From: Owenia fusiformis
Taxonomy: Eukaryota; Annelida; Polychaeta; Sabellida; Oweniidae
Length of the DNA stretch: 64,000 nucleotides
Direction: 5' to 3'
NCBI GenBank assembly: GCA_903813345.2
Contig: CAIIXF020000009.1
Coordinates: 15,341,759 to 15,405,758 of the forward strand
Shown: positions 51,501-54,500 of the stretch, piece after piece
Numbering within the stretch: position 1 is the stretch's first letter
How the letters are laid out: each line of letters opens with the position of its first letter
Translations under genes and position numbers: made by a program
The notes under the pieces: generated by a model
What the model was told of the DNA's origin: nothing
Databases searched by the model: none
Seen by the model: the letters and a program-made list of their open reading frames with translations, nothing else

Positions 51501-54500
51501 TTTTTCTCAATGGATCGGTAAAGCATTTTTTTATTAAATAAAAGAAGTGCTTGAAACGCTTGTTCTCAACATTTTTTTGTCAAACATATATATAAATAAA
51601 TATAATTAAAACATTAGATCTGACACTTATTCCAAACACTCATAAACATACAATATTTTGAAAAATGATTATAAACATATGTCTCTTCACTCGAACATCC
51701 TGAATCTGTGACCAATATAAAATAATAGTCAATATAAATTGACAATCAGCTCAAAATGTCACAAAATTAAATCAATTTCTTCCGAAAAGTCTTCTTCAAA
51801 CTTTAAACTATTCGGAACAGTATGTTACAATTATAATATGTATATCTATTCACATTCCCAGTCCAATGCTTGATTCAAAACAAAATATATGGGTAGGAGT
51901 TGTCTTGGGTACCAGTTGTGACAGTTGTCTTGGGTACAACTTGTCTTGGGTACGAGTTGACCAGTTACCTTAAATCTAGTGGTGGGACTTGCCACCAAAA
52001 TCTCTACTCGAGTAGAATGATAAATTTGATGATCGAGTAGACGATTTTGACAATTTTTAAAAAAAATTGAGAAAATTAGAACCTGGCAAATCAAGGCTTT
52101 TGTTACTACGTACATCGACTTTTGGTTTCATGACCATTCAATTCCTACTTCCGTCAAAATTCATTGCGCATGCGCATTCGATATACCGGATATAAACAAA
52201 CATAAAAAAAATTGAATATGAATCTCATACTTTATTCTCATCAACTAACCATTAAATCAACAAAACAATCTGCAGAATATAGTCTGAAGTACGTAATTTA
52301 TTAGAAACAACGCTAAGGCAGCTACAATTCTTGCTTAAATCGTGAATATGGAGGGTAAATCGCGATTTTTCTTAGAAATTTCAGGATCACGATTTTCAAA
52401 TTTTCAATCGATTGATCATTTTCTTGGCTCATTCGAGTTCTAGTCCGAGTCACTCGTTACACCACTACTTATTAATCAGTGGAAATTCTAATATTTCTCT
52501 AATGAATGTCTTTTAGTATCTGCCATTTAATCAAGGATAAATATGCTAAATATTACAATGTATATATTATACAAATATTGAATTCTGTGGAGTTGAATAT
52601 CTGTATATATTTCTGAAGGTGTATTCAGGTGTATACAGATATTCAACTCCACAGAATTCAATATTTGTATAGTATTGCATTTCATATTACATATCGGTTT
52701 ATGGATTCAAGAATATAGTATTCTTCGTTGGGATTTGCTACTCCGTGGAGTTGCTGATTTTTATTTTAATATGCAACATGCTATTAACATCTGTTTAATG
52801 TGTATTGCAGATAATGCTAGTAATTTTTAGATTTAAATAATGAAGTATTTTAAGATACCATTTGATTTGTGTTAGAGGGTACCAAGTTCTTCAGTTCATT
52901 AACTTTTGAGCAGCCATCTTGTGTTCTGGCAGCCATTTTAGAAGTTTCCGTTAATCCTGTCATGACCATTCCATTTTTGCACATGTTAGAGGTACCAAGT
53001 TCTATGTAACTTTTGGATAACTACTGGGTGGTGTGATCTTGTTTATGTCATATATCTTGTTACTATTTTAGATTGCGGGATATATATCTGAGCTGACCAT
53101 GACGAATGCAGGAGTCATCAAACCCCCAATAGATTATTTTAAACTTATTTACAGGTAATCCTGCATGATAGACATTTTACCATGTATCACATTTCATCAG
53201 TGCCAATGATCACAATTTTCTACTCATCATCACTGTCGTTGATGTTGTTGTCATTATCATTTTTTTTAAAAATTGGTCTATGAGTCCTGTCCGTGATCAC
53301 ATCGTCTCACTTGTGACTGGTGCCAATAAACTCAAAAGGCTATTGAGCTTGTTGGGTAAGTGTATTAGAGATCATTTTTGATTCATCATCTCCAAATTCA
53401 CCATTCTCTTAATTATTTTTTCTTGTGTTTTAGTGTTACACTGCTGGAGTTGTTCGCCACTGATGATTTGTGATATATGGTTTACATTTGAATAATAATT
53501 GAAACATATAGTTTAATGTTTGATTTCAGATTGGTACGTTTATCAGTGAAACTCTACTGGCTAAGCCTGGCATTATAAAACCACCAAAAAATTATTTTAA
53601 GATGGTGTACAGGTATTGAAAATGCAAACAATTTTAATTGTTGTACTGCTAGGGTACCAACTTTGAAATTCCCCAGTTTCGCTATAGTATTATTGTATAA
53701 GTGCACACAATGCTTTGAAATAAGCTTGAAATATTTTTGAAAACCAAATTATATCCCTTTTCACACATCTGGTGGGTCTAATCATTTTTCTAAATAATTG
53801 CTTTTGCTTTTGACATAATTGTCATTTGGAGGCTTGGGAGATTGGGTTTATCCTGAGGGATTAATCTACTATAATCTAGTATTTATCCCATGGTTGCAAG
53901 GATATAGATTGAATATCACATGATGATGTATTTGATATGTGGATCAAGATATCATATTTTCGCAGAAATACCCTTAACCATTGAATGCTTTTTCTTAATT
54001 TGTTTCAAAAGTGATAGTAGATGGTTTTTATATTTTCAAAAAATATTTTAAATTGATTCTTTCAATTGATTTTTTCAAAATTTTTATTTTTCTGATTTTT
54101 TAATGTTTGCTAGGAAATCATAGGATATTCCTATATTATACCATGATCACTGTGATATTAGGTGTATATAGCACTTGATTTTTGCCATATGCACTGTATA
54201 TACATCTGCTGTATAGATCCATGTATACATTCCATACACTTCTCTCTCAGGATTTTATGAACTTTTATTGTTTTGCGTATCTTGTAATTTCGTCCAGTGT
54301 AGTGTTTGAAAATAGAAATAGAATAACTTCAATAGATTGGATAACTATCCAAGTTTGAGAGGGATATAGAGAAGCTGTCCATTCGTTCTTTCGTCTGTTT
54401 ATCCTTCTGTCTGTTCAGGCGATAACTCAAATACCGGTTGATGGATTTCATTCAAATTTGATAGGCCTTTGCCTTAGGGATGTAGGACCTCTGCTTGAGA

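What the first reader, a model, noticed from the sequence alone, without database searches (positions are those of the whole stretch)
53072..53612. Mutually exclusive exon pair in a PLP phospho-lyase
Exons 7a and 7b have equal length (83 bp), equal phases, intact splice sites and clear homology. They differ at many residues in a segment that normally contacts the active site (the IAE...GG..PP region). As 83 is not a multiple of three, inclusion of both breaks the frame. This would give two enzyme forms, perhaps separating the phosphoethanolamine and phosphohydroxylysine activities that vertebrates place in two genes. I do not know of this being described.
Basis: partly seen in the sequence, partly recalled or inferred. 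Interest (0 to 1): 0.85.

Follow-up and report, generated by a model that had tools for sequence, protein, structure and literature searches.

The report
Swappable active-site exon in an enzyme
An apparently animal gene related to a phosphate-removing vitamin B6 enzyme carries two alternative versions of the exon that lines its active site, built so that a working message must use exactly one of them, so one gene could make two enzymes with different chemistry; no RNA data were at hand to prove it.

Summary
Exons 7a (53072-53154) and 7b (53530-53612) are both 83 bp, phase 0 to 2, open, with GT-AG sites. They are homologous (13 of 27 residues, 49 of 83 bases), and including both or neither shifts the frame to a stop. 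Chance, and long neutral drift of one copy, are poor explanations. The intron between them has no other copy found in G000 and can form a 24-base stem. So this is most likely an old, working mutually exclusive pair, though no transcript was available.

The gene belongs to the ETNPPL/PHYKPL clade but lacks two basic pocket residues found in 33 of 33 other clade sequences examined: an Arg (here Gly) and a Lys (here Thr). A second clade gene with the usual residues lies tail-to-tail beside it. The two exons differ at all six residues of the active-site loop, placing Asn (7a) or Lys (7b) where ornithine aminotransferase has its gating Glu235. I read it as a diverged paralogue with a splice-switched pocket. 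The kind is known (coq-2, ACSL6); I found no report for this family in the listings seen.

The parts
43942..44060 (+). coding exon 2 (exon 1 not located)
   Evidence: same length (119) as the paralogue's exon
44513..44672 (+). coding exon 3; holds Gly63, at a position that is Arg in 33 of 33 other clade sequences examined
46446..46520 (+). coding exon 4
46707..46800 (+). coding exon 5
50597..50710 (+). coding exon 6, ends in phase 0
53072..53154 (+). alternative exon 7a (83 bp, phase 0 to 2): [27 protein letters not shown]; Asn199 at the PatA Glu243 / OAT Glu235 position
53155..53529 (+). intron between 7a and 7b, 375 bp; no other copy found in G000
53179..53202 (+). 5' arm of predicted intron stem (22 of 24 bases paired)
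   Evidence: equalled by 0 of 400 shuffles with Watson-Crick scoring, 1 of 400 with G-U; chosen after being seen
53458..53481 (+). 3' arm of predicted intron stem
53530..53612 (+). alternative exon 7b (83 bp, phase 0 to 2): [27 protein letters not shown]; Lys199 at the same position
57884..57978 (+). coding exon 8; holds Asp227 and Gln230, kept cofactor-site residues
59202..59314 (+). coding exon 9; holds Lys257, aligned with the PLP lysine (PatA Lys300)
60528..60682 (+). coding exon 10
62693..62782 (+). coding exon 11
62872..63151 (+). last coding exon with its stop codon (63149-63151); holds Thr386, at a position that is Lys in 33 of 33 other clade sequences examined

Best explanation
The gene is a diverged paralogue of the ETNPPL/PHYKPL phospho-lyases that keeps the PLP machinery but has lost two basic substrate-pocket residues common to its clade. 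One exon coding the loop beside the cofactor was duplicated long ago, and the two copies are spliced in alternatively. Shown from sequence: equal length and phase, open frames, intact splice sites, homology, a frame lock against including both or neither, a pattern of change typical of coding constraint, and differences concentrated in the active-site loop, with Asn versus Lys at the gate position. Inferred: that both exons are used, one at a time; that the intron stem helps block 7a-to-7b joining by shortening the path between donor and branch point; and that the switch changes which substrate or reaction the enzyme handles.
For: Gene model and frame consequences. Chance control. Neutral simulation, BLOSUM62 score reached by 0 of 20,000 in each direction. 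Splice sites: 7a donor ranks 10 of 20 and acceptor 16 of 22; 7b donor 19 of 20 and acceptor 2 of 22. Intron found once; stem equalled by 0 of 400 (Watson-Crick) or 1 of 400 (with G-U) shuffles. All 6 residues between the conserved Glu and Gly differ, against 8 of the other 21 (p = 0.010, loop picked after seeing the alignment). Alignment to E. coli PatA puts residue 199 at Glu243, which PMC4244111 equates with OAT Glu235 (passages); the Glu235-Arg413 pair is proposed to be a molecular switch in PMC9136103 (passages). PLP Lys, Asp and Gln are kept.
Against: No transcript, no second animal and no structure model were available. The stem was tested after it was seen; whole-intron folding is only weakly unusual (9 of 200 shuffles as low or lower; 13 of 500 for the end-to-end duplex). 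7b's donor is the second weakest of 20. The neutral simulation cannot exclude that one exon fell out of use recently, and about a third of simulated copies stayed open. That the lost Arg and Lys bind the substrate's phosphate is inferred from conservation and aligned position, not seen in a structure here. The 30 bacterial sequences were found with the neighbouring paralogue, which has both residues, as query, and are 30 of the 47 matches listed, so the 33 of 33 may be somewhat favourable. G000 is one unnamed assembly.
Confidence: 0.7

Rival explanations
1. One of the two exons is a dying copy that is no longer spliced in; the gene makes one enzyme.
For: 7b has a weak donor (rank 19 of 20) and 7a a weaker acceptor (16 of 22); both differ from the canonical loop of the neighbouring paralogue.
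Against: Both are open with intact splice dinucleotides after divergence at 34 of 83 bases, and their similarity score is far above neutral decay (0 of 20,000). Both keep the conserved Glu, Gly, Pro-Pro and Tyr-Phe.
Confidence: 0.15
2. The pair is mainly a dose switch: including both exons (or neither) is the regulated event and sends the mRNA to decay, while the two proteins are equivalent.
For: Including both or neither gives an early stop. 7a's fair donor faces 7b's strong acceptor, which would favour joining them unless blocked.
Against: The protein differences sit in the active-site loop (6 of 6 against 8 of 21), with a charge change, which a pure dose switch would not need. A predicted stem lies between the two exons.
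Confidence: 0.08
3. One reading: one isoform is a phosphoethanolamine lyase and the other a phosphohydroxylysine lyase.
For: The best solved match is human ETNPPL (6TOR, 471.5 bits), and the gene falls in that clade.
Against: The Arg and Lys found in 33 of 33 other clade sequences examined are Gly and Thr here in both isoforms. A canonical clade gene ends 5.2 kb beyond this gene's stop codon, tail-to-tail.
Confidence: 0.05
4. Assembly error: two tandem gene copies collapsed, leaving two exon 7s.
For: None found.
Against: The 631-bp stretch with both exons was found once in G000, the flanks of the two exons are unrelated, and the other exons tested at their own length (9 besides 7a and 7b; the last exon not tested) found no second copy nearby other than in the paralogue.
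Confidence: 0.02

Closest known systems
coq-2 exons 6a/6e (PMC7434440, passages seen)
   Same: Mutually exclusive internal exons of equal length (134 nt there, also not a multiple of three) that swap the core of an enzyme and steer its substrate choice; reported in helminths, annelids and molluscs
   Different: A polyprenyl transferase, with RNA evidence and exon removal; here a PLP enzyme with no RNA evidence
ACSL6/ACSL1 fatty-acid gate exons (PMC1543647, passages seen)
   Same: An exclusive exon pair coding about 26 residues that hold the substrate gate, differing at a key residue
   Different: Different enzyme family; cDNAs exist there
OGDH exons 4a/4b (PMC7969005, abstract and passages seen)
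   Same: Duplicated exclusive exons in a metabolic enzyme, enforced through the intervening intron and a proposed steric limit of about 50 nt between donor and branch point
   Different: Distant branch points there; here a predicted intron stem, untested
ETNPPL / PHYKPL (AGXT2L1 / AGXT2L2) phospho-lyases
   Same: Same clade; 52% identical to human ETNPPL over 425 aligned columns; PLP residues kept
   Different: Arg and Lys of the pocket are Gly and Thr; the active-site loop differs from ETNPPL in both isoforms; compared with the neighbouring paralogue there is an extra intron before exon 7
Ornithine aminotransferase / E. coli PatA
   Same: Class III family (Pfam Aminotran_3, about 246 bits); exon 7 covers the Glu235/Glu243 gate
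   Different: The partner Arg413/Arg426 is Thr, and the gate Glu is Asn or Lys

Membership tests
Mutually exclusive exon pair | About the same length (criterion A of PMC3228551, passages seen) | tested here: met
   83 and 83 bp
Mutually exclusive exon pair | Compatible splice sites and the same reading frame (criterion B) | tested here: met
   GT-AG on both sides, phase 0 to 2 for both
Mutually exclusive exon pair | Sequence similarity (criterion C) | tested here: met
   13 of 27 residues, BLOSUM62 77 against a next-best chance score of 1
Mutually exclusive exon pair | Including both or neither is unproductive | tested here: met
   Frameshift and stop in both cases
Mutually exclusive exon pair | Transcripts hold exactly one of the two | not testable with these tools
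   No RNA data
Mutually exclusive exon pair | Conserved in related species | not testable with these tools
   No related animal genome was offered by the tools (G000 'has no relatives here')
ETNPPL/PHYKPL phospho-lyase | Falls in the clade by sequence | tested here: met
   With ETNPPL at 100/96 in a 40-row tree and 100/97 with exon 7 masked in a 34-row tree; place relative to the neighbouring paralogue unresolved (p-AU 0.29 and 0.28)
ETNPPL/PHYKPL phospho-lyase | PLP lysine and cofactor residues | tested here: met
   Lys257, Asp227, Gln230
ETNPPL/PHYKPL phospho-lyase | Arg at the PatA Gln119 column (defined here from conservation) | tested here: not met
   Gly63; Arg in 33 of 33 others examined
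ETNPPL/PHYKPL phospho-lyase | Lys at the PatA Arg426 column (defined here from conservation) | tested here: not met
   Thr386; Lys in 33 of 33 others examined
ETNPPL/PHYKPL phospho-lyase | Releases phosphate from phosphoethanolamine or phosphohydroxylysine | not testable with these tools
   Needs an assay
Class III aminotransferase (OAT type) | Glu235-Arg413 gate pair | tested here: not met
   Asn or Lys, and Thr

The most novel reading that the evidence does not exclude
A fold-type I PLP enzyme whose active-site gate is chosen by splicing. In a paralogue that has lost both basic pocket residues conserved in its clade, exon 7b supplies a new lysine, not seen at this position in 33 clade sequences, and exon 7a leaves the pocket neutral, so that one gene makes two enzymes with different substrates or even different reaction types, enforced by a frame lock and an intron stem.
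Probability: 0.3. Interest if true: 0.72.

Novelty: new member of a known kind. Interest (0 to 1): 0.5.

Why it matters
Few enzymes are known in which splicing swaps the residues that choose the substrate. If real, this pair gives a model in which the two forms differ by 14 of 458 residues, so the effect of one active-site loop on PLP chemistry could be measured directly. It would also show an escape from phospho-lyase chemistry after gene duplication, with a canonical copy kept next door.

Tried and rejected
Assembly collapse: rejected. A dispersed element as the source of the intron stem: no other copy of the intron found in G000 (that search skips simple repeats and very common words). Incompatible U2/U12 splice types as the cause of exclusion: both introns are GT-AG and the donors do not look like U12 donors (U12 consensus recalled; sequences). 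A third exon 7 copy: none found. A doubled exon 7 in the paralogue: there the segment is fused to exon 6, and the following intron is 155 bp. A lineage-specific origin of the two genes against an older split: not resolved. Exon 1: a motif-filtered scan of 30001-43941 gave 14 candidates, none convincing. The genome-contig scan returned 49 loci (L007-L055), 26-32% identical and with the residues of general class III enzymes; they served only as comparison columns, and three of them as outgroup rows in the tree. A search for 6TOR, 5G4I or A1RDF1 found no relevant paper in the library, so residue roles in phospho-lyases come from alignment alone. Paper searches for a description of such a pair: 0 papers; 2; 20 of 21 listed; 25 of 82 listed; 0; 15 of 19 listed; 20 of 50 listed; 15 of 79 listed; no title or abstract start that I saw describes one, and the unlisted papers were not seen.

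Full report
What is there. The window lies in G000:C9:15341759-15405758, a 498-Mb assembly without a name; that it is an animal is my inference from the introns and from the nearest relatives. The gene's coding exons 2 to 12 run from 43942 to 63151 on the + strand. With either exon 7 the joined exons give 458 codons and a stop; exon 1 was not found. Exon 7a is 53072-53154 and exon 7b 53530-53612, each 83 bp, phase 0 to 2. Both together, or neither, shifts the frame into a stop.

More than chance. Over both strands of the window and of 47,242 bases downstream, 611 stretches fit AG-N83-GT and 113 are open in the phase of exon 7. Apart from 7a itself, only 7b scores above 1 against 7a, and it scores 77. 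The exons differ at 34 of 83 bases (16 at third, 11 at first and 7 at second codon positions) and share 13 of 27 residues. dS estimates are large and unstable (1.2 by YN00, 3.4 by ML; NG86 gave none) with dN 0.42-0.49. In neutral simulations 0 of 20,000 runs from either exon reached the observed BLOSUM62 score; by plain identity 0.8-0.9% did; about a third stayed open by chance. So an open frame alone means little, but the pattern of change does. The test cannot exclude recent disuse of one exon. Flanking introns are 35% identical, ungapped, over 40 bases each side.

Splicing. Scored against the other introns of the two genes, 7a has a mid-range donor (10 of 20) and a weaker acceptor (16 of 22), and 7b a weak donor (19 of 20) and a strong acceptor (2 of 22). 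The intron between them, 375 bp, was found once in G000. It holds 24-base inverted arms, 53179-53202 with 53458-53481, that pair at 22 of 24 places and are equalled by 0 of 400 dinucleotide shuffles with Watson-Crick scoring and 1 of 400 with G-U pairs. The stem was picked before testing, and the whole-intron fold is only mildly unusual (9 of 200; end duplex 13 of 500). With the stem formed, the donor of 7a and the acceptor of 7b are separated by 24 plus 48 bases and a helix. PMC7969005 (abstract and passages) cites a proposed steric limit of about 50 bases between donor and branch point, which helps keep OGDH's exons exclusive. That the stem works this way here is inference.

What the protein is. 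Both isoforms match Pfam Aminotran_3 at about 246 bits, and the 7b isoform matches human ETNPPL (6TOR) best among solved structures (471.5 bits), then the bacterial phospholyase 5G4I (247.2 bits). A 40-row tree puts the gene in the phospho-lyase clade (100/100 for the 35 rows), next to ETNPPL (100/96), on a branch of 0.9 (the program warns of long branches between the clade and the outgroup). With exon 7 masked and no outgroup the pairing with ETNPPL is 100/97. The data do not reject the neighbouring paralogue as its sister (p-AU 0.29) nor the paralogue as ETNPPL's sister (0.28), so the order of the three is open.

The neighbour. On the - strand, C9:15410104-15452613, lies a second gene of the clade, tail-to-tail with this one. 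Seven of its exons have the same length as here (119, 160, 75, 94, 95, 155, 90). Exons 6 and 7 are one 209-bp exon with the loop AESMQSCGGQVIPP and no second copy. It is 59% identical to ETNPPL, against 52% for the window gene. In a search of G000 with isoform A, 25 matches of 25 candidates were scored: most are these two genes; weaker matches on C2, C3 and C5 were not assembled or placed, so further clade genes cannot be excluded. PMC4678570 (passages) lists AGXT2L1/AGXT2L2 as a paralogous pair in regions from the vertebrate genome duplications, so the two genes here are not simply the vertebrate pair.

The pocket. I aligned the isoforms with E. coli PatA, whose Glu243 and Arg426 are equated with OAT Glu235 and Arg413 in PMC4244111 (passages). 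In OAT this pair is proposed to act as a molecular switch (PMC9136103, passages). Residue 199 of the window protein, coded by exon 7, is at the Glu243 column: Asn in 7a, Lys in 7b. I compared 33 other clade sequences: 30 loci from the class of G003 (a genome whose record is titled Alphaproteobacteria), 5G4I, ETNPPL and the paralogue. The 30 loci are those cut for 47 listed matches in 36 of 289 genomes, found with the paralogue as query, which may favour sequences like it. In the 33 this column is Ser 11, Cys 8, Asn 7, Thr 5, Val 2, never Lys, so 7a's Asn has precedents and 7b's Lys none here. Among 49 general class III sequences one Lys occurs, beside an alignment gap (L011). The Arg426 column is Lys in 33 of 33 and the Gln119 column is Arg in 33 of 33; the window gene has Thr and Gly. 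Of 50 columns conserved in at least 30 of 31 bacterial clade sequences, the window gene changes 7, the paralogue 2 and ETNPPL 3. Two of the 7 are these basic residues; the PLP lysine, Asp and Gln stay. In exon 7, all six residues between the conserved Glu and Gly differ between 7a and 7b, against 8 of the other 21 (p = 0.010, a loop I picked after seeing the alignment).

Reading. The true substrates are unknown. A phosphate-binding role for the lost residues is inferred from conservation and position; I found no structure paper in the library.

Known company. Exclusive exons that change an enzyme's substrate site are known: coq-2 (PMC7434440, passages) and the ACSL6 gate (PMC1543647, passages). 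Pyruvate kinase M also has an exclusive exon pair (PMC3498831, search listing only), and an oyster alternative oxidase a spliced duplicated exon (PMC5589949, search listing only). The pair meets all three sequence criteria of PMC3228551 (passages), whose authors report 90 of 16,180 fly X-chromosome exons not annotated as exclusive that share those features. I found no description of such a pair in the ETNPPL/PHYKPL family or in class III PLP enzymes in the listings; several listings were partial and most subscription papers are not in that library.

Noticed in passing
window 60661-61031 and 61614-62365: A 41-bp minisatellite (9.1 and 18.3 copies) in the intron after exon 10 begins inside the exon: the array includes the last 22 bases of exon 10 and the donor region. 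AGGTAATAATC occurs six times and CAGTTAATAATC fifteen times in it, so the intron holds several decoy-like donors.
   Followed up: partly
G000:C9:15410104-15452613 (- strand), just beyond the window: A second ETNPPL/PHYKPL-clade gene, tail-to-tail with the window gene, with canonical loop and pocket residues.
   Followed up: yes
window 44959-46019: An element with 197-base inverted ends (91% complementary) in the intron between exons 3 and 4; the inside reads like a decayed Tc1/mariner-type transposase (name recalled, not tested).
   Followed up: no
window 52564-52675: A near-perfect 44-base hairpin (98%) in the intron, about 400 bases before exon 7a.
   Followed up: no
window 54830-55134: A 114-base inverted repeat (79%) in the intron between 7b and exon 8, near arrays of about 141-base repeats.
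   Followed up: no
window 63089-63151: The C-terminal tail is acidic and then basic ([20 protein letters not shown]) and has no counterpart in the paralogue's tail in the alignment (the ETNPPL row was only its matched part, so it says nothing there); possibly a targeting tail, untested.
   Followed up: no
L056, L057, L059, L061-L064: The closest bacterial relatives lie at the C-terminal end of open frames of 1,006 to 1,042 residues (L063 with one stop inside the match), close to the 1,015 positions of NF004799, the best NCBIfam match of the window isoforms; the loci themselves were not scanned with it.
   Followed up: no
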